Assembly: GCA_947594025.1 (NCBI GenBank)
Contig: CANQDZ010000014.1
Span: 1-34,227, forward strand
Source of the DNA: Candidatus Gastranaerophilales bacterium
Lineage (GTDB): Bacteria > Cyanobacteriota > Vampirovibrionia > Gastranaerophilales > Gastranaerophilaceae
Length of the DNA stretch: 34,227 nucleotides
Reading direction: 5' to 3'
The translations under genes and the position numbers were made by a program. How positions within the stretch are numbered: the first letter of the stretch is position 1; each line of letters starts with the position of its first letter. Below the pieces are notes generated by a model. That model made no database searches. It saw only the letters and a program-made list of their open reading frames with translations, and was not told where the DNA came from. Positions 8,177-17,115 of the stretch are shown one piece after another.

Positions 8177-8683
8177 ATGCTCGAAATGAAAGTAATGGGA
8201 ATAGCACTTGATACAAGAACAGGTTCGCCTATTGTTGTATTAAATGACAAAGATAACAGAATTGCGCTGCCTATATGGATAGGCTCAGCGGAAGCAAGTT
8301 CAATAATCAGAAAAATTGAAAACATACCGCCTTCAAGACCGATGACGCATGATTTGTTTATAGATATATTTAATCAAACAGGCTATACATTGACTCACGT
8401 TGAGATAAATGATGTAACGGAAGAAACTTATTATTCTTCACTTATTCTCAAAAAAGGGGGGGGGACAATAAGAATTGATTCAAGACCATCTGATGCAATT
8501 GCAATTGCCATAAGGGCGGATGTTCCGATTTGTGTTTCACCTGAGGTTATATCAAAGGGCGGGATAACAACGAATTCTCAAAGAGATGAAGAAGAAATGC
8601 TTGAGTTTAAAAACTTTATTAAAGACGTTAAACCCTCAGATTTTGGAAAAATGATAAATAAAAATTTTGAATCCGACCAATAG
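8177..8683 (+). CDS. Bifunctional nuclease-family protein (DUF151/BFN)
   Basis: A 168-residue protein of the BFN family (DUF151), found widely in bacteria, cyanobacteria and plants; some members have RNase and DNase activity, but most are untested. Signature features: the start with V-M-G-I-A-L-D, L-P-I-W-I-G-S-A-E-A-S-S-I (near 32-44), and the core I-D-S-R-P-S-D-A-I-A-I-A-I-R. The middle contains K-K-G-G-G encoded by A6 followed by G9 (8450-8464), a striking homopolymer in such AT-rich DNA and a potential frameshift hotspot. AGAGGG lies upstream of the ATG. It is transcribed divergently from speB. Confidence 0.92.
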   Translation: MLEMKVMGIALDTRTGSPIVVLNDKDNRIALPIWIGSAEASSIIRKIENIPPSRPMTHDLFIDIFNQTGYTLTHVEINDVTEETYYSSLILKKGGGTIRIDSRPSDAIAIAIRADVPICVSPEVISKGGITTNSQRDEEEMLEFKNFIKDVKPSDFGKMINKNFESDQ

Positions 8684-9128: not shown

Positions 9129-9217
9129 GCTCCAGTGGCGGAATAGGTAGACGCGTTGGACTTAAAATCCAATTAGGCTCACCCCTAGTGCCAGTTCAAG
9201 TCTGGCCTGGAGCACCA
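9129..9217 (+). tRNA. tRNA-Leu (anticodon TAA)
   Basis: An 89-base class II tRNA with encoded CCA. Acceptor stem GCTCCAG (9129-9135) pairs with CTGGAGC (9207-9213), followed by ACCA. The anticodon stem TTGGA/TCCAA encloses loop CTTAAAA, anticodon TAA at 9163-9165. A long variable arm, as expected for Leu, and the T-arm GCCAG-TTCAAGT-CTGGC (9190-9206) are all present. A -10-like TATACT lies a few bases upstream (9117-9122). A strong terminator follows directly. Confidence 0.97.
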
Positions 9218-9220
9218 CTT

Positions 9221-9251
9221 AAAAAAGACCTGAAATTTTCAGGTCTTTTTT
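9221..9251. terminator. Bidirectional intrinsic terminator after tRNA-Leu
   Basis: AAAAAAGACCTGAA (9221-9234) pairs perfectly with TTCAGGTCTTTTTT (9238-9251), leaving a 3-base loop. It ends the tRNA transcript and, from the other side, the three-gene minus-strand operon whose last stop is at 9269. Confidence 0.9.
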
Positions 9252-9268
9252 AAAGGAAAAACTTTTAA

Positions 9269-11500
9269 TTATTCTTCGTTTGACTCTTCAAGTCTTTTTA
9301 TTTCTTTTACGTATTTAGTTATAAGTTCTTCAAGCACGCTGATTTGTTTTTGAATATTCAGATAATAAATTTTTGTTTCAACAGCATTTTTGCTGCTTTT
9401 TACTTTCCTTAGTTTTTCAACCAAGTTTTGTTCAGTATCATCTTTTTCGTACTCTTGAAGCTCCGTTTGAAGTGTTTGAAGTCGTTTTTCTATATCTCCT
9501 ATTTTAGACATTCTGAAGTTGCAATCTTCTTTTTTATCTTTCAATTTTTCCATTTGGTCTTCAAGGTATCTGCATTCTACAATCGGATTTTCAAGCATTT
9601 CATCAATTTGGCTTTGAATTGATTTCTTAGCTTCCCTAACAATAAAGTCGGGTTTTGTACCCTTTGGTAATTTTGCGGAAGAAACCAGCGTATCCGGTAT
9701 TTGCAAGCCTTCCAAGTATGCCATTTTACCTGTTAACAAATCATATTTTGCAAGTATTCTTGATTCTTGTTTTTTATCTATGGACATATCTTCACGAGTA
9801 TACATTATGCCGTATTGCAGCTGTTTAATTTGCGCTTGAATTTCATTTTTTTCTTTCTGAATTTCGTCTTTTTGTGCAACTTTTTCTTTTAATGCATAAA
9901 TTTCTCTTTTAAGAGAATGAATATCTTGAAGTTTTTTTGTTATTTCACTAATTTCCGCATTGTAATCCTCGGGAAGGGTAATTCTTGCCTTTAGTTCCTC
10001 AAGAGCTTTTTTCTTTTCGTTATACACTTCCGTGATTTCGTTATATTCTTTTTCGGCTATTTCTCTTTGTTCTGCGGCATTACTATGTTTTTCAATTCTT
10101 TCTTCAACCTTTTTCAAATCTTCTTTTAGTTTCATTATTTTTTTTGGATGAAGTCCGCATGTTTCAAGAGATTTTCTGATTTCTTCAGCCTTTTTATATC
10201 TGTTTTCCTGAATACTTTGAGATTGTTTAGCCGCGCTTAATTTTTTAGATGCAGCTTGTCTTCGTTTTGCATAAGCTTCCACAACTGTATTAAGAGCAAA
10301 GTATTCTGAAAGATTAAGATATTCTTCGTCATTTGCATACTTGTCTGCAATTTTATAAAGCTCCGATAATTCCTCTTGTTTTTTCTCTATTCTTCTCTGC
10401 ATTGCGCAAAGACGTTCTTCTTTTGTTAAAGTTTTAGGAATATCTTTAAACAAATCATCGGACGCTGAAAGTTCTCTAACTTCAAGCTCTATTTGCCCTT
10501 TTGATTCTTCTCTTATTACGTTTACAACATCATCGGGATAATCGTCGTATCCGTTTATTGCTTTTTCTTTAATCCTTCTTGAGACTTCATCAAGATAGTT
10601 TTGTAAATTAACAGGCATATCGGGATGACCTTCAAGCCATTCGTCGTACGGAATGCTGCTTCTGCTTGAATTACATTTTGCACACATTGCTATGTAATTG
10701 CCTGTGTTATTTTCACCGCCTCTTGATTTTGGGATAACGTGTTCGGTTGTGGACAATGAAGGATTTAATAATCTTCTTGCGATTTCTTCTTGTCCTCTCC
10801 TTGCATATTTAATTAAAAACGCGCTTGCACTGTCAACAGAACTCGGCATTTTAAATGCCGCAGTCATGATTGTTTCATAGCCTTTTTCGTCAGTTGAATT
10901 TTTACAAATTTCATTCAAGTCTGACAAGAACGATTTTCTTTTAAAGAAGCTGTCATCCTTAAATTCGCGAACATTTTCAGCGCTTCTTTCAAGGTATTTT
11001 ACATATATCTTACGAACGTCGTCATTATTAATTAAAGAGGACATCCCTTTTAATTCTTCAATAATTCCTGACTGTTCTTCTATAAGTTTTTCCCTGTGTT
11101 CAACACTTATTTTTCTTGTTAATTCAGAAATATTTAATTTTGGATATTGCTCGGCGTATTTTGAGATTTCAAAGGCAACTTCTTTTTCAACAGGTTTGTA
11201 ATATTTTTCATACCTGTTTAAAGTGCCTGCTAAATCTCTACCTGTTCTGTTTTCAACTTCATTGATAAATTTTTCAAGCTGAGCGTTTGTTACCATATCA
11301 GTCCCGCAGCAAGGACAAGGGATATTGTATAGACCCTTAACCCTAAATGCGTCTGCCTTGCAGGGGTGACCCGCGAATGATGTTTCTTCGGATTTTTCAA
11401 AAACATCATTTTTTAGCGAATTAATCATGTAACCATGAGGTTTTGCCGTTAATGGTCGATAGTTAAGGTTTTTTATATTTTGAATAAGATTAATTCTCAT
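9269..11500 (-). CDS. HNH-nuclease domain protein with zinc knuckle and long coiled coil; S-F-x-G N terminus
   Basis: A 743-residue protein, third gene of the 9.3-17.1 kb operon. Residues 1-44 form an extension with S-F-A-G at 41-44. Next is a Cys-rich P-C-P-C-C-G (61-66), possibly one half of a zinc site. An HNH endonuclease motif follows at 252-281: E-H-V-I-P-K-S-R-G-G, Asn268, then C-x-x-C-N (273-277) and R280, fitting the ββα-metal fold with its structural CxxC. From about 360 to the C terminus the protein is almost entirely charged heptad-like helix, interrupted by a few Pro/Gly, so an elongated coiled coil is likely. The ATG is preceded by AGGAG and overlaps the helicase gene by 11 bases. 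Cutting of DNA or RNA is plausible from the motif; target and biological role are unknown. I know of no named family with this domain order. Confidence 0.85.
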   Translation of the reverse strand: MRINLIQNIKNLNYRPLTAKPHGYMINSLKNDVFEKSEETSFAGHPCKADAFRVKGLYNIPCPCCGTDMVTNAQLEKFINEVENRTGRDLAGTLNRYEKYYKPVEKEVAFEISKYAEQYPKLNISELTRKISVEHREKLIEEQSGIIEELKGMSSLINNDDVRKIYVKYLERSAENVREFKDDSFFKRKSFLSDLNEICKNSTDEKGYETIMTAAFKMPSSVDSASAFLIKYARRGQEEIARRLLNPSLSTTEHVIPKSRGGENNTGNYIAMCAKCNSSRSSIPYDEWLEGHPDMPVNLQNYLDEVSRRIKEKAINGYDDYPDDVVNVIREESKGQIELEVRELSASDDLFKDIPKTLTKEERLCAMQRRIEKKQEELSELYKIADKYANDEEYLNLSEYFALNTVVEAYAKRRQAASKKLSAAKQSQSIQENRYKKAEEIRKSLETCGLHPKKIMKLKEDLKKVEERIEKHSNAAEQREIAEKEYNEITEVYNEKKKALEELKARITLPEDYNAEISEITKKLQDIHSLKREIYALKEKVAQKDEIQKEKNEIQAQIKQLQYGIMYTREDMSIDKKQESRILAKYDLLTGKMAYLEGLQIPDTLVSSAKLPKGTKPDFIVREAKKSIQSQIDEMLENPIVECRYLEDQMEKLKDKKEDCNFRMSKIGDIEKRLQTLQTELQEYEKDDTEQNLVEKLRKVKSSKNAVETKIYYLNIQKQISVLEELITKYVKEIKRLEESNEE

Positions 11501-14186
11501 TGGCTCCTACTGCATTAATGTCATATATGGGTGGTCTTGCGATTAAATCAATTGCATCGTATGATGTATCAATCAAATCTTTATAGTAGCTTGTGTCTTC
11601 AAAGTCGCCTGATTCAATTGCAAATTCGCAGATATTTATAATTTGTTTTAATACATCCACGCTTTTTGCAATTTTAGCATATACGGCGCCGTCTTCAAAT
11701 CCTCTTTCAACGCTTGGAGAAATTCCGTTTTTCGCATTCTTCTTTCCGATAATTTCTCTTTGCAGCGTTTTAAAGTTTTGAATGCTTTTTTCATCATCTT
11801 CTAAGTTTGATTTTGCCCAAGCGTATGTAAGTGCCGCTTCAAAAACGCCTGTCGCTTCGGTTGTTCTGACTTTCGTTCTCATTAATTGTTCAAGCGATTC
11901 GGTTTCATCATCATATTCAAGCGCCGCATCAAGTACATCAATTAGTGCTGATTGTCTGTTCTCATCGGAAGTTGTTCTTTTTAAGTAGTTCAAGAACATC
12001 ATATCTTCGATTTCTTTATTTTCGCTTTCTTTCTCGGCACCCATTGAAGCCGCAAATGCCGCAAGCTCGGGAGCATTTAATTTTTTTAGATTTTTAGAAT
12101 AAATGGAGTCAATAAGAGTAAGCTCGTTATAGCCATGGGCTTTTGCAAGCATTTGTCCTTTTTGTGTGGGCTTGAAACCATATTGCGTTTCTGTTAGGAA
12201 CCCTTTTTCTAAAAGCACGTCTCTGTATTTTATAAATTCATATTTAAGTCTTCTTGCTTCCTTCTCGGGGTTTTCTGATTGAAAAACCTTAAGAGTATTT
12301 TGTTCAAAGTATTCAAGAAGGTCATCGTTTTCTACCTTTTTGTAGTATGCCGGCAAAAATGAATAACTTGGACTAAACGCACTTTCTGCGTTGTCGGGTG
12401 ATTTTAATATAAGGTCTTTTGCAATTTCGACATCTCTTTTTCCGATATCGTATAAAACAACGTTTCCGATTGTATCAATACCTCTTCGTCCCGCCCTCCC
12501 TGACATTTGGTGAAATTCATTTGAGGTTAAAGGTACATATTCTATAAAACCTTCTTTATTTTTTGTCGGTTTATCAATTGATGTGACAACAACCGTTTTT
12601 GCGGGCATATTAATACCGGCTGAAAGAGTAGATGTTGCAAAAACGGTCTTTACTAATTTTTTAGAGAACAATTCTTCAACAAGCTTTTTGTATGCGGGAA
12701 GTAAGCCTGCATGATGAGAAGCCACACCTTGAATTAATTCGTTTTCATTAAATTCTTTGCCGAGATAAACGCCATTTGCCTTGTATTCATCAATTATTTT
12801 CTTAATTTCTTCTTTTTCTTCTTTAGTTGTTAAATTTAATCCGCTATTTGCAAGAATTTCCGTTGCCTGATTGCACCCTCTTCTTGAGAAGATAAATACA
12901 AGAGCGGGCAGCTTGTCTTCTTTTTTAAGCGCACCAATAAGATTTCTGTAGTTATTTTTTTCACTTTTGCTGCGCTTAATACCGCAAAAATCCCTTATAC
13001 TTCTTGTATCGGAATCAAGCAAAAGTTGAGCAAGTTCTTGTGATTGGAGAGGAGTCAATCTGAATTTTTTTTGCAATAATCCTGAGAATTTTTGATGAGA
13101 TACCGCTTGATGATTAACCATATCAAGAAGCTCATCAATTACCATTTTTTGTTCTTCATAAGTTGCATGATAATCATCATCATGATTTGTTCTCTTTTGA
13201 ACGAGCATATCTATTGCACGGATTTGTCTTTGTGAGAGATTGTCATTTTCGAAGTTATCTTTAATGCTTATAATATTTACATCGCCTCTTATAAGCTCCT
13301 CAAAGTGATTTTTGCTTTTTTCCACATAGTTATAATAAACAAGAGGAACATGCCTGTCCCTTGGAGCCGCTTCAACTAATGTCGCAGGCAAAGATGTAAC
13401 GCTTTTAATCCATTCCGTAAATTCTTCACCGTTGCCGATTGTAGCGCTTAACGGCACAATTTGAACATCCGGAGGAGTAAGCATAACACTTTCTTCCCAA
13501 GTTTTACCCCTTTCACTCTCACTGATATAGTGAGCTTCATCAAATATAACTGATTTTACATTGTTAAATTTTTTGTAATCACCTTTAGAATAAGCATCAA
13601 GCGCCATGTTTCTGTAAATTTCGGTTGTCATAATAACAATTGGCGCCTCTCCGTTAAGCTTTATGTCGCCTGTTAAAAGACCTACGTTTTCGCTTCCGTA
13701 CAGTTTGCTGAATTCTCTGTATTTATCGTTAGATAAAGCCTTCAATGGTGTTGTATATATGGTCTTTTTATTTTCGCTCATGTTTTTTGTTATTGCATAG
13801 TTTGCAATAGCGGTTTTACCTGTGCCTGTCGGCGCTATACATATTGTGTTGTTACCGTCGTATATGCTTTTTGCGCAAGCAAGCTGGGTTTTATCCGGAA
13901 GCGCCTGAATCATGTTGCCTTTTTTAGTTTTAATTACGGGCAATTTAAAATAGTTTCTATCAATAGTATCTTCAAACGTCGCTTTCTTTGGTGATATTTT
14001 CCCGTATAAAGGAAGGTCGCCTCCCGAGATTTTATCACCCCTGAATGAAAGTGATGTCATATTCATATAATTAAGTACGTCGCAAGCGCCAATTCCGTGC
14101 GAGGTTATTGGCGATGTTGCACAACTTGTTTTCTGTTCTCGGTGCTTACCTGGATTTAACTTAATTCCGATGCCGTTAATTTTCAT
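11490..14186 (-). CDS. Ski2-like DExH-box helicase with S-F-x-G N-terminal extension
   Basis: An 898-residue superfamily 2 helicase of the Ski2/Mtr4/HelY group. Motifs: A-P-T-G-T-G-K-T (118-125), T-T-P-L-K-A-L-S-N (Ia), D-E-A-H (216-219), S-A-T (247-249), F-I-F-S-R-R-G-C-N (IV), S-T-L-S-A-G-I-N-M-P and Q-M-S-G-R-A-G-R-R-G (VI, 560-569); all look intact, so it should be an active ATPase. Relatives unwind RNA, often with nucleases. Ahead of the core is a ~60-residue extension absent from typical family members, ending M-T-S-L-S-F-R-G-D-K (S-F-R-G at 47-50). The C-terminal ~300 residues are helical and less conserved. It overlaps the upstream protease-like gene by 11 bases and the downstream HNH gene by 11 bases, so all three are co-translated; a helicase-nuclease-protease machine is inference from this. 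Confidence 0.92.
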   Translation of the reverse strand: MKINGIGIKLNPGKHREQKTSCATSPITSHGIGACDVLNYMNMTSLSFRGDKISGGDLPLYGKISPKKATFEDTIDRNYFKLPVIKTKKGNMIQALPDKTQLACAKSIYDGNNTICIAPTGTGKTAIANYAITKNMSENKKTIYTTPLKALSNDKYREFSKLYGSENVGLLTGDIKLNGEAPIVIMTTEIYRNMALDAYSKGDYKKFNNVKSVIFDEAHYISESERGKTWEESVMLTPPDVQIVPLSATIGNGEEFTEWIKSVTSLPATLVEAAPRDRHVPLVYYNYVEKSKNHFEELIRGDVNIISIKDNFENDNLSQRQIRAIDMLVQKRTNHDDDYHATYEEQKMVIDELLDMVNHQAVSHQKFSGLLQKKFRLTPLQSQELAQLLLDSDTRSIRDFCGIKRSKSEKNNYRNLIGALKKEDKLPALVFIFSRRGCNQATEILANSGLNLTTKEEKEEIKKIIDEYKANGVYLGKEFNENELIQGVASHHAGLLPAYKKLVEELFSKKLVKTVFATSTLSAGINMPAKTVVVTSIDKPTKNKEGFIEYVPLTSNEFHQMSGRAGRRGIDTIGNVVLYDIGKRDVEIAKDLILKSPDNAESAFSPSYSFLPAYYKKVENDDLLEYFEQNTLKVFQSENPEKEARRLKYEFIKYRDVLLEKGFLTETQYGFKPTQKGQMLAKAHGYNELTLIDSIYSKNLKKLNAPELAAFAASMGAEKESENKEIEDMMFLNYLKRTTSDENRQSALIDVLDAALEYDDETESLEQLMRTKVRTTEATGVFEAALTYAWAKSNLEDDEKSIQNFKTLQREIIGKKNAKNGISPSVERGFEDGAVYAKIAKSVDVLKQIINICEFAIESGDFEDTSYYKDLIDTSYDAIDLIARPPIYDINAVGANEN

Positions 14187-17115
14187 GAACCATTTCGCCT
14201 TTTTTGGTCTTTTCCATTATGCTTCTGATTTCAGATTCAAGCTTTTTAAGCTCCTCTTGTTTTTCGGGAGTTTGTTTGCTTATCCATTCTTCAAGCTCTG
14301 CTTCAAACTGTTCGGAAGGAATTAAGCATTCTCCGGTGCCGACCTTATCTTTGTATTTGTTTGCAAATTCTTTGATGAATGATGAATAAGCCCATACAAT
14401 TTTGTCTGAAATTACACTTGTGTTATTTGCAAACAATTCCATATCTTTATCAAATTTTTCTCTCATTTGAGGTGAAATATCCATTTCGCCTAACAGAGTA
14501 TCCTGTATGGAAATTTTGCCCACATTTGGTCCGAGACACATATGTTGTATTGCCTCTTTAGACCTTTGTGTCATAGATTTCATATCGGCTGTGATGCCTC
14601 TGCTTCCGTCAAAACCGTATAACAGTTTTTCTGAAGAATTACCGCCAAAGTCTACTACCAACTCACCCAAAACGTCATATAATGTGTAAATAATAGACTC
14701 GGGTTCTTTAAAGTATACCGCACCGCCGTAAGTGCTTCTCGGATCAAGGGTGATAAAGTCAATTTTCAGGCTTTTCTGCCAGCTTTTACCTTCTTTGTTT
14801 AGAAGTTTATCCATAACATAGCCGGTAACGGCGTGACCGCCTTCATGTGCGCTTATTATTTCACTTGACGGGTCTTCCATTCTTTCGTAAGAAGGTCTTC
14901 CTGTTGTTATTTGAAGAAAAGCTTCAATGAAGTCTTCTTTTTGAATTTTTTCTTTACCTCTTTCGTTTGCAACATTCTGCGCTTTATCCAAAAACGCCAA
15001 CAATTGAACAAGAGGGAAATATGATGTTGTTTCTGCTGCGCTTTGAATTACCTTGTCAATTTCTTCTTTAGTTTCACCGTCTATTTTAATTCCTTTTTTG
15101 TTAATGTAATATTCAAGGATTTCTTTTCTTGAATCGGTGTTAAAAGCAGGCGATTCAACTTCGATTTCGTCAATAAATTTGAATGATTTCATCATTGATT
15201 CGCCGACAACACTCGGGTCTGACATAGAACCCATAACCAGAATATTAAGTCCTTGTTTTTGGGCATTTGTCATTTCTCTTAAAAGCTGAGACATTGCTTT
15301 CTGGTGATATTCGCTGACTTGTTCGCCGACTGAAAAATATTCAAAGTTTTCTATGAATAAGACAGCCGCTTTTGATTCATTTGTTTCAGCTTGAGATTTG
15401 GCTAAGCTGAATAGTTTTTTCATTGAAGCTTCGGGGGTTAAATTACCTCCGCCAAACAAGTCAACATCTTTTGTACCAAAATCAAGTGCGTTTATTTCAA
15501 TGTAAGGAATTTTTGCCTCCCCTGCGACAACTTGTGCCATGTGGCGTCTGCCTGCACCGGGATAACCGTCTTGAGAATATACAATATATCCTTTTGTTCC
15601 TATTGTTTTTTCTTTAATTTGTCTGATAATGGATTTTGCTTCTTCTTTAGTTCCCTTTGCGCCAACCATATCATCCAATTTTTTACCCGTATCAAATTGC
15701 ATAACTATTGAGCTGTCAGCATCAACAGGTTTAAATATTTCTTTTGCTTCCTGAACGTAGTGCACAACATCATCTGCGGTTATTTTGTCTTTTTTATCAA
15801 TGTAATAAGAAGCAACCAAGCCCATAACTTTTTGCGCTTTTTCCGGATAATTGCCCGCCAGTGTTGCTGCAACTTCAACGCATTTATCAATAGCCTCAGG
15901 TTCAAATTCTTTATTTATTTTTTTGGTTAAAACTTTTGCTTCGTCTCTAAATACTTGTTTGGCTTTATCCGTGTTTAAGATTGGAACCGTAACTTCACCA
16001 TAATCTGCAAACGGTTCGTCTTCGCCTTGGTGGTCAACGGTTTGATAATACAAGTCTTTTTCACTTACAATTACAAATTTTGAATCTTTTGGCGGTTTTT
16101 TAAACGTTTCCTCCAAGCTTGGACTAAAGTTAAATTGGTCTTTGCCCGTAGGAACAATAAATACATGGCTTTTTGAAGTGTCAGCCGACGCACGTCTTAT
16201 TTTGTGAGAAATATAATCATTTGTTGCATTGTTGTTAAATGAGATAATTTCAACATTTTCAGAATCCAGTTTGCCAAATTTTTCACCATCGTTAATAACG
16301 TGTTTAAAGCTGTCAATTAAATACTGCGGATTAACATTTTTATCGTGCAGGATAAACATATTGGTTCCGACAGCCAAATTTCTCCAAAGATTTCTGGCTT
16401 TGTCATCATAGAATTTTAAATGCGGTGAATCTTCCAGTTTTGTATGGTCTAACATAAGTGTTTCTTGAAGTTTTCTTCTGAAAGGAAGAGCAACTCGTTT
16501 GGTATATTCATCATCATCGGAATATAACGAAGCATTTAGTATATGGGTGTCTGAAAACGGTATATTGTCATCAAATTTATCTTGGTCCCAGATTGCATAC
16601 ATTGTGGTTAAGTGGTCAGGGTTCATTGAGGGTTTAGAGATTGTTTTCTTTTTACCTTCCGCTGCCATCATGTCATTTAAGATTTTTATCTCATCTTTAA
16701 TGATTGGCTTAATTTTTTTTCTTTTTTCGACGGATTTGAACATTTTCGTATCAAATATGGATTCCATGAAATATCTCATATCTGAAGATTGTTCCGCACC
16801 GTAATAAGTTGCTCCGGAATCCAAGTCTTCAATATATTTATCCAGAACCTCTAAGCAAGCCAAAAGTGTATGTTCTTCTTTTATTTCTTTTGAGCCGTAT
16901 TGCCTTGCTATCTCGGCGCTTCTGTCTAAAACTTTTGATGCACTGATTTTTGCAGAGTCTCCTATCTCTTTTAATTTTGTTTTGCTGGTTTTTCTTCCTT
17001 TAAAGCTTACCGTATCGCATCCCATTATAGGTGCAGTTACATTTGCTGAATTTGCCTGCGCAAAATTTATGCCTCTTTTTATAGAAACATTAGTTAAACT
17101 AACCGGTTTAATCAC
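14176..17115 (-). CDS. Clp/FtsH-like protein: degenerate AAA modules plus intact M41 zinc peptidase
   Basis: A 979-residue protein, first gene of the operon. Order: N-terminal extension with V-S-F-K-G (S37-G40); a Clp-N-like helical region (about 55-100, with G-S-K-E-I-K-E-E-H-T-L-L-A); a region resembling a ClpA/B first ATPase module whose P-loop and Walker B are lost (about 240-460); an FtsH-like AAA module (475-740) with degraded Walker A (G-Y-P-G-A-G-R-R, 517-524, for GPPGTGKT) and Walker B (V-L-F-I-E-N, 585-590, for IIFIDE); and an M41 peptidase domain with intact H-E-G-G-H (757-761) and a probable third zinc ligand Asp844 in G-I-T-A-D. FtsH's membrane helices are absent, so it should be soluble. 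ATP hydrolysis looks unlikely while proteolysis looks possible. Start is GTG with AAGGA 8 bases upstream; the nearby ATG at 17123 runs into TGA after three codons. Confidence 0.85.
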   Translation of the reverse strand: MIKPVSLTNVSIKRGINFAQANSANVTAPIMGCDTVSFKGRKTSKTKLKEIGDSAKISASKVLDRSAEIARQYGSKEIKEEHTLLACLEVLDKYIEDLDSGATYYGAEQSSDMRYFMESIFDTKMFKSVEKRKKIKPIIKDEIKILNDMMAAEGKKKTISKPSMNPDHLTTMYAIWDQDKFDDNIPFSDTHILNASLYSDDDEYTKRVALPFRRKLQETLMLDHTKLEDSPHLKFYDDKARNLWRNLAVGTNMFILHDKNVNPQYLIDSFKHVINDGEKFGKLDSENVEIISFNNNATNDYISHKIRRASADTSKSHVFIVPTGKDQFNFSPSLEETFKKPPKDSKFVIVSEKDLYYQTVDHQGEDEPFADYGEVTVPILNTDKAKQVFRDEAKVLTKKINKEFEPEAIDKCVEVAATLAGNYPEKAQKVMGLVASYYIDKKDKITADDVVHYVQEAKEIFKPVDADSSIVMQFDTGKKLDDMVGAKGTKEEAKSIIRQIKEKTIGTKGYIVYSQDGYPGAGRRHMAQVVAGEAKIPYIEINALDFGTKDVDLFGGGNLTPEASMKKLFSLAKSQAETNESKAAVLFIENFEYFSVGEQVSEYHQKAMSQLLREMTNAQKQGLNILVMGSMSDPSVVGESMMKSFKFIDEIEVESPAFNTDSRKEILEYYINKKGIKIDGETKEEIDKVIQSAAETTSYFPLVQLLAFLDKAQNVANERGKEKIQKEDFIEAFLQITTGRPSYERMEDPSSEIISAHEGGHAVTGYVMDKLLNKEGKSWQKSLKIDFITLDPRSTYGGAVYFKEPESIIYTLYDVLGELVVDFGGNSSEKLLYGFDGSRGITADMKSMTQRSKEAIQHMCLGPNVGKISIQDTLLGEMDISPQMREKFDKDMELFANNTSVISDKIVWAYSSFIKEFANKYKDKVGTGECLIPSEQFEAELEEWISKQTPEKQEELKKLESEIRSIMEKTKKGEMVHEN

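What the first reader, a model, noticed from the sequence alone, without database searches (positions are those of the whole stretch)
9269..17115. Three-gene operon: M41 protease on a dead AAA scaffold, Ski2 helicase and HNH/coiled-coil nuclease
Three large genes on the minus strand share reading-frame overlaps of exactly 11 bases at both junctions, so they are co-transcribed and probably made in fixed proportion. They join a protease-like, a helicase and a nuclease activity, a mix more usual in RNA decay or genome defence than in housekeeping operons. I know of no described system with this set. The flanks are ordinary genes (tRNA-Leu, an outer-membrane protein) and I see no mobile-element marks, so a core function of this lineage is as likely as defence.
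Basis: partly seen in the sequence, partly recalled or inferred. Interest (0 to 1): 0.9.

Follow-up and report, generated by a model that had tools for sequence, protein, structure and literature searches.

The report
Leader-tagged protease, helicase, nuclease operon
A gut relative of cyanobacteria has three joined genes for an odd protease whose motor is dead, an RNA-type helicase and a nuclease; the three are usually not together in relatives, but all carry the same kind of short front tag that the lineage also puts on many unrelated proteins, which hints at an undescribed protein-sorting signal.

Summary
In detail: three minus-strand genes (HNH/coiled coil, Ski2-type helicase, M41 protease) overlap by 11 bases at both junctions. 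The window is from a Gastranaerophilaceae MAG (gut, non-photosynthetic cyanobacterial class). The "fixed three-gene system" is not: the trio is adjacent only in this genus (2 of 2 species). Elsewhere the M41 gene stands alone (48 of 146 family genomes), while a helicase-HNH pair recurs in four genera. The 11-base overlaps are an ordinary class here and become 29 and 14 bases in the sister species.

The M41 protein is unusual. It has an Hsp100/Clp-like N domain and D1, then an FtsH-type AAA, then M41. Both AAA modules are dead (Walker-A Lys replaced by Arg in 97/97 orthologs), yet all zinc and catalytic residues are kept (97/97). It was found only in this family.

All three proteins start with an acid-poor, Asn-rich, disordered leader ending in F-x-G/A. 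The same leader sits on unrelated proteins (adenylate kinase, phosphoglucomutase, nucleotidyltransferase, a kinase-like protein). Untagged core copies of FtsH, Ski2 and adenylate kinase lack it. Every near-complete family genome sampled encodes a type III export gate, so the leader could be an export signal; this is unproven. Defence is not supported.

The parts
14176..17115 (-). M41 zinc protease gene (979 aa): leader + Hsp100-like N and D1 + FtsH-type dead AAA + M41
16996..17115 (-). N-terminal leader of the M41 protein (residues 1-40), ending ...CDTVSFKG; disordered in the model (pLDDT about 27)
15682..16983 (-). Hsp100/Clp-like N domain plus degenerate D1 AAA of the M41 protein (residues 45-478)
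   Evidence: AlphaFold pLDDT 91.8; all 50 listed Foldseek hits are ClpA/B/C or Hsp104; collinear hhalign match to own ClpC
14896..15681 (-). FtsH-type AAA module (about residues 479-740): Walker A GxGR, Walker B I-E-N
14179..14877 (-). M41 peptidase domain (from about residue 747): H757-E758-x-x-H761 and D844 kept in 97/97 orthologs
14176..14186 (-). 11-nt overlap M41/helicase, ATGAAAATTAA
11490..14186 (-). Ski2/Mtr4-type DExH helicase (898 aa) with DSHCT domain and intact motifs
14037..14186 (-). N-terminal leader of the helicase (residues 1-50), ending ...TSLSFRG
11490..11500 (-). 11-nt overlap helicase/HNH, ATGAGAATTAA
9269..11500 (-). HNH endonuclease gene (743 aa) with C-terminal coiled coil
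11369..11500 (-). N-terminal leader of the HNH protein (residues 1-44), ending ...NDVFEKSEETSFAG; F42 invariant in 15 aligned relatives
10661..10753 (-). HNH motif (residues 250-280) with two of four invariant cysteines
9219..9253 (.). perfect 17-bp inverted repeat between tRNA-Leu and the operon end, probable shared terminator
9129..9217 (+). tRNA-Leu(TAA), flank; its link to the bifunctional-nuclease gene 8177-8683 is shared with g21, g26, g36 and g37, which lack this operon there

Best explanation
The operon is a genus-level joining of two modules made of 'extra-copy' proteins that carry one lineage-specific N-terminal leader. Module 1 is a translationally coupled helicase-nuclease pair: a Ski2-type DExH helicase unwinds or feeds structured nucleic acid (RNA more likely than DNA, from its nearest solved relatives Ski2 and Mtr4) to an HNH/coiled-coil nuclease. 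Module 2 is a soluble M41 zinc protease on two ATPase-dead AAA modules (Clp/Hsp100-like D1 and FtsH-like), so it should cut peptides or loosely folded proteins without ATP, the AAA parts serving as ring scaffold or substrate platform. The disordered F-x-G/A leader sorts these copies away from the untagged housekeeping FtsH, Ski2 and similar proteins. Shown: gene identities, dead AAA with intact protease site, pairing history, leader on unrelated proteins. Inferred: RNA substrate, ATP-independent cleavage, joint action, sorting role of the leader.
For: Helicase: nearest PDB chains yeast Ski2/Mtr4, E about 1e-67; DSHCT. HNH-paired helicases of g1, g39, g21 and g15 lie on one side of a 100/100 branch among labelled rows; the pair overlaps by 1-14 nt in the g1, g21 and g39 loci read. 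M41: HExxH and D844 97/97, Walker A Lys to Arg 97/97, Walker B second acidic residue never kept (N in 88/97); Foldseek FtsH/AFG3L2 6e-20 and Hsp104/ClpB/ClpC 4e-10 for the N half. No transmembrane segment in any of the three. Leader: F invariant in 95/97 M41 and 15/15 HNH proteins, leader disordered, N doubled and D+E 2.6-6.3% against 13% in background N-termini. DTVSFxG-type DNA pattern: 65 hits against 10 for the reversed control in 40 family genomes, most at residues 30-80 of an ORF; outside the family about 104 against 88, no clear excess (my sums over). Untagged core copies: Ski2, FtsH, adenylate kinase beside a tagged one.
Against: No experiment. M41 is not linked to the helicase or HNH outside this genus; M41-helicase co-occurrence is only moderate (15 both, 8 helicase only, 33 M41 only of 146; Fisher p 6e-4, not corrected for kinship). 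The leader is defined by a loose motif; searches find it on only 1-2% of sampled proteins, with false positives. Some Ski2 homologs (g32, parts of g21, g26 and g36) show a weak or altered F-x-G. A shared leader does not prove a shared destination.
Confidence: 0.5

Rival explanations
1. The leader is a type III export signal and the three products are substrates of a type III (flagellar-like or injectisome-like) export gate that all these bacteria keep; they act outside the cell.
For: An FHIPEP gate (FlhA/SctV) in 39 of 40 family genomes and 34 of 34 near-complete ones, own genome included, beside FliE-, FliF- and FliH-type genes. Own FHIPEP is below both the FlhA and SctV equivalog cut-offs, and several genomes hold it plus a second, clearly FlhA-like gate. 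The leader is N-terminal, disordered, acid-poor and Asn-rich, as type III signals often are (general knowledge). Tagged metabolic enzymes (phosphoglucomutase, nucleotidyltransferase) recall the secreted glycogen enzymes of Chlamydia (PMC4829429, title and abstract seen; details from memory).
Against: No secretin, needle or chaperone was looked for or shown; published work reads these genes as partial flagella (PMC5877343). The F-x-G motif is not a known type III feature.
Confidence: 0.3
2. Anti-phage defence: helicase-nuclease pair with a protease partner, Hachiman-like in working.
For: Best PADLOC hits of the helicase are HamB models (E 2.7e-28); helicase plus nuclease is a common defence make-up.
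Against: Only the generic helicase core matches; no HamA; HNH and M41 give no convincing defence family. Presence is genus-constant and vertical for the helicase; flanks are housekeeping; no repeats or mobile marks; M41 absent from viral contigs scanned.
Confidence: 0.12
3. Cytoplasmic RNA decay or surveillance unit: helicase feeds RNA to the HNH nuclease, M41 removes bound or stalled proteins; the leader is only an assembly tag.
For: Ski2/Mtr4 kinship, coupled pair, vertical inheritance.
Against: A core untagged Ski2-type helicase already exists; HNH enzymes mostly cut DNA; the leader on adenylate kinase and sugar enzymes does not fit an RNA-decay tag.
Confidence: 0.25
4. The three genes are unrelated neighbours brought together by chance next to tRNA-Leu in the ancestor of this genus.
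For: M41 stands alone elsewhere; the spot downstream of tRNA-Leu is variable among genera.
Against: Trio and overlaps kept in both sampled species of the genus at only 43-63% protein identity; helicase-HNH coupling recurs.
Confidence: 0.25

Closest known systems
FtsH / AFG3L2 (AAA-M41 proteases)
   Same: AAA followed by M41; HExxH and the third zinc ligand kept
   Different: Walker A and B lost in every ortholog, no membrane anchor, an added Hsp100-like half; FtsH equivalog score 91 against cut-off 600
Chloroplast FtsHi / Ycf2-FtsHi motor
   Same: Degenerate FtsH paralogs used as scaffold; Foldseek and sequence hits
   Different: From general knowledge FtsHi lost the protease and keeps ATPase subunits in the complex; here the reverse, protease kept and ATPase lost
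ClpC / ClpB / Hsp104
   Same: N domain plus D1 fold of the N half, collinear weak profile match to own ClpC
   Different: No Walker motifs in D1; joined to FtsH-type AAA and M41 instead of D2 and ClpP
Ski2 / Mtr4 (eukaryotic exosome helicases)
   Same: DExH core and DSHCT, E about 1e-67
   Different: Partner is an HNH/coiled-coil protein, not an exosome; N-terminal leader; arch domain not tested
Hachiman (HamA-HamB)
   Same: Helicase plus nuclease, HamB models score best in PADLOC
   Different: No HamA; only the helicase core is shared; distribution is vertical
Type III secretion signals
   Same: N-terminal, disordered, acid-poor; export gate present in the family
   Different: Leader has a fixed F-x-G/A end; export not shown; no injectisome parts verified

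Membership tests
FtsH family (ATP-dependent zinc metalloprotease) | Walker A GxxGxGKT and Walker B DE | tested here: not met
   R in place of Lys in 97/97; second Walker B acidic residue never present
FtsH family (ATP-dependent zinc metalloprotease) | M41 HExxH plus distal Asp zinc ligand | tested here: met
   H757, E758, H761, D844 in 97/97
FtsH family (ATP-dependent zinc metalloprotease) | Membrane anchor and curated FtsH score | tested here: not met
   No hydrophobic segment; TIGR01241 91 against 600 bits
Hsp100 / Clp | N domain and D1 fold | tested here: met
   Foldseek E 4e-10, all 50 listed hits Hsp100; hhalign 9e-4 and 3e-3 against 0.59 shuffled
Hsp100 / Clp | Active D1/D2 ATPase, ClpP docking | tested here: not met
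   No Walker A in the D1-like region; D2 absent
Ski2-like DExH helicases | DExH core motifs plus DSHCT domain | tested here: met
   Pfam DEAD, Helicase_C and DSHCT above cut-offs; PDB Ski2 7e-68
HNH endonucleases | H-N-H motif with Cys pairs | tested here: met
   Pfam above cut-offs; H254, N268, N277 and four Cys invariant in 15 relatives
Hachiman defence | HamA (DUF1837) beside HamB | tested here: not met
   No HamA hit among the three proteins; partner is HNH
Defence island genes | Patchy presence, mobile context | tested here: not met
   Helicase genus-constant and vertical, no repeats, housekeeping flanks; M41 is patchier
Type III secretion substrates | N-terminal uncleaved signal recognised by the apparatus | not testable with these tools
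   Composition and disorder fit, export not testable
Encapsulin cargo | Encapsulin shell in the genome | tested here: not met
   PF04454 in 0 of 40 family genomes

The most novel reading that the evidence does not exclude
Gastranaerophilaceae use an undescribed N-terminal F-x-G/A leader to send a defined set of duplicate enzymes, among them this dead-motor Clp-FtsH chimera protease, a Ski2 helicase and HNH nucleases, to one destination, most likely out of the cell through a divergent type III gate that all members keep even when they lack a second, flagellar one.
Probability: 0.27. Interest if true: 0.86.

Novelty: new variant of a known kind. Interest (0 to 1): 0.62.

Why it matters
The protease reverses the usual order of decay in AAA proteases: motor lost, protease kept, across 97 orthologs, on a Clp-FtsH hybrid scaffold, which makes ATP-independent action of an M41 enzyme directly testable. 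The shared leader would be a sorting code in a widespread but uncultured gut lineage whose way of dealing with its surroundings is nearly unknown; its list of tagged proteins would then be a list of what the lineage sends there.

Tried and rejected
Fixed-stoichiometry reading of the 11-nt overlaps: rejected, since 11 nt is common here and not kept in the sister species. Integration at tRNA-Leu: no direct repeats or attachment-site copy; the flank is ancestral and the operon lies beside it only in g1. Encapsulin targeting: excluded in 40 genomes. Phage origin: M41 pattern hits in viral contigs were not relatives; helicase hits in phages are partial, at most 48% coverage and 38% identity. A simple F-x-G count over all proteins was too loose to show an excess by position; requiring a polar upstream stretch gave a modest N-terminal excess; the DTVSFxG DNA pattern with its reversed control gave a clear one. 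The HNH alignment was too divergent for a viral scan. No paper describing such a leader was found.

Full report
What is there. The three ORFs, their strand, lengths and 11-nt overlaps are as reported. Domains: HNH plus coiled coil; DExH helicase with DSHCT; AAA plus Peptidase_M41. The genome is a 1.51-Mb MAG, 98.9% complete, of Gastranaerophilaceae: relatives of the M41 protein among named genomes are almost all Candidatus Gastranaerophilales, the nearest (63%) being 'Cyanobacteria bacterium SIG30'. A few hits are labelled Clostridia or Acinetobacter, probably misnamed MAGs.

Is it one system? In 146 family genomes a full M41 ortholog (E <= 1e-50, or cut by a contig end) is in 48 genomes of 16 genera (tallied). 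In 20 genomes read with wide flanks it has no helicase or HNH neighbour except in the sister species G002, which keeps the trio and the same flanks at 43-63% protein identity. The leader-bearing helicase (E <= 1e-80) is in 23 genomes of 8 genera. It is coupled to an HNH gene in g1, g21, g39 and, with a shorter HNH, g15, and stands alone in g16, g26, g32 and g36. In a careful ML tree the HNH-paired helicases are one side of a 100/100 branch, the unpaired g26/g32/g36 helicases form another clade, and the untagged core Ski2 copies a third. So the pair is the older unit, and M41 joined it in genus g1, next to the ancestral bifunctional-nuclease/tRNA-Leu flank.

The protease. Across 97 orthologs the zinc site is invariant (H757, E758, H761, D844), while Walker A has Arg for Lys in all and Walker B ends in Asn in 88 and never in Glu. 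The C-terminal part matches FtsH and AFG3L2 and the chloroplast Ycf2-FtsHi motor in sequence and fold. The N half, modelled at pLDDT 91.8 from 65 sequences, gives only Clp/Hsp100 proteins among the 50 listed fold matches, best E 4e-10, with a weak but collinear profile match to the own ClpC N repeat and D1 lid (E 9e-4 and 3e-3, shuffled control 0.59). There is no transmembrane segment. I read it as a soluble Clp-FtsH chimera with two dead AAA modules and a probably live protease; activity itself is inferred. It was seen only in this family: none of the other 109 phylum genomes had it at 1e-60, and viral contigs had none.

The leader. Each of the three proteins starts with 40-50 disordered residues ending in F-x-G (SFKG, SFRG, SFAG). 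The leader does not otherwise align, yet its Phe is kept in 95 of 97 M41 proteins and 15 of 15 HNH relatives. Leader N-termini have twice the Asn and a half to a fifth of the acidic residues of other N-termini. A DNA pattern for D-T-V/I-S/T-F-x-G gave 65 hits against 10 for its reversed control in 40 family genomes (sums over); about 36 of the 42 hits placed in ORFs lie 30-80 residues from the start (some loci overlap). In the phylum sample I sum about 117 against 21 within the family and 104 against 88 outside it, so it is a family trait. Tagged proteins include nucleotidyltransferase, phosphoglucomutase, adenylate kinase, HAD hydrolase, a kinase-like protein and HNH proteins; most have no Pfam family. 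Genomes with a tagged adenylate kinase also keep an untagged one; the same holds for Ski2 and FtsH in the own genome. The start Met-Lys/Arg-Ile-Asn of this leader is also why both overlaps are 11 nt.

What the leader may do. Encapsulin cargo is excluded. A type III export gate is present in 34 of 34 near-complete family genomes; in the own genome it lies beside FliE-, FliF- and FliH-type genes and falls below the cut-offs for both flagellar FlhA and SctV, while some relatives hold a second, clearly FlhA-like gate. Published work speaks of partial flagella in these bacteria (PMC5877343) or of flagella (PMC3787301). Export by this gate is my most novel reading; it is not shown.

Mechanism and rivals. 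Best supported: a coupled helicase-nuclease pair plus an ATP-independent M41 protease, extra copies sorted by a common leader. Defence is weak: only the helicase core resembles HamB, and the helicase follows descent. A purely chance joining cannot be excluded for M41.

Limits.

Noticed in passing
L256:4917-15625 (G028 contig C7): Tandem array of about 13 paralogous genes of about 260 aa, most with a DTVSFxG-type leader, same strand, no Pfam family in the one tested.
   Followed up: partly
L319:13997-19825 (own genome, contig C15): FliE-, FliF-, FliH- and FHIPEP-type genes in a row with a 323-aa gene of no known family; FHIPEP in 39 of 40 family genomes, some with two or more.
   Followed up: partly
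L102:6002-9808 (own genome): 1268-aa leader-bearing protein (ISFTG) without a Pfam hit; by eye glycoside-hydrolase-13-like stretches.
   Followed up: no
L086:5098-6909 (own genome): 603-aa leader-bearing nucleotidyltransferase with three F-x-G repeats (VFKG, INFKG, ISFTG), next to the core Ski2 helicase gene.
   Followed up: partly
G136:C11:7579-9081, G042:C3:159840-161255, G016:C21:32367-33719 and others: A second, shorter (about 750 aa) FtsH-like subfamily, 25-29% identical to the window protein, in g5, g16 and g20.
   Followed up: no
L227, L231, L233, L234, L245, L247, L255: Seven related leader proteins of about 400 aa from different genera, no Pfam family in the one tested; by eye a possible RelA/SpoT-like stretch.
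   Followed up: no
L138, L139, L144: In g26 the long HNH protein lies next to a conserved row of two TPR-like genes and a 460-aa gene, away from the helicase.
   Followed up: no
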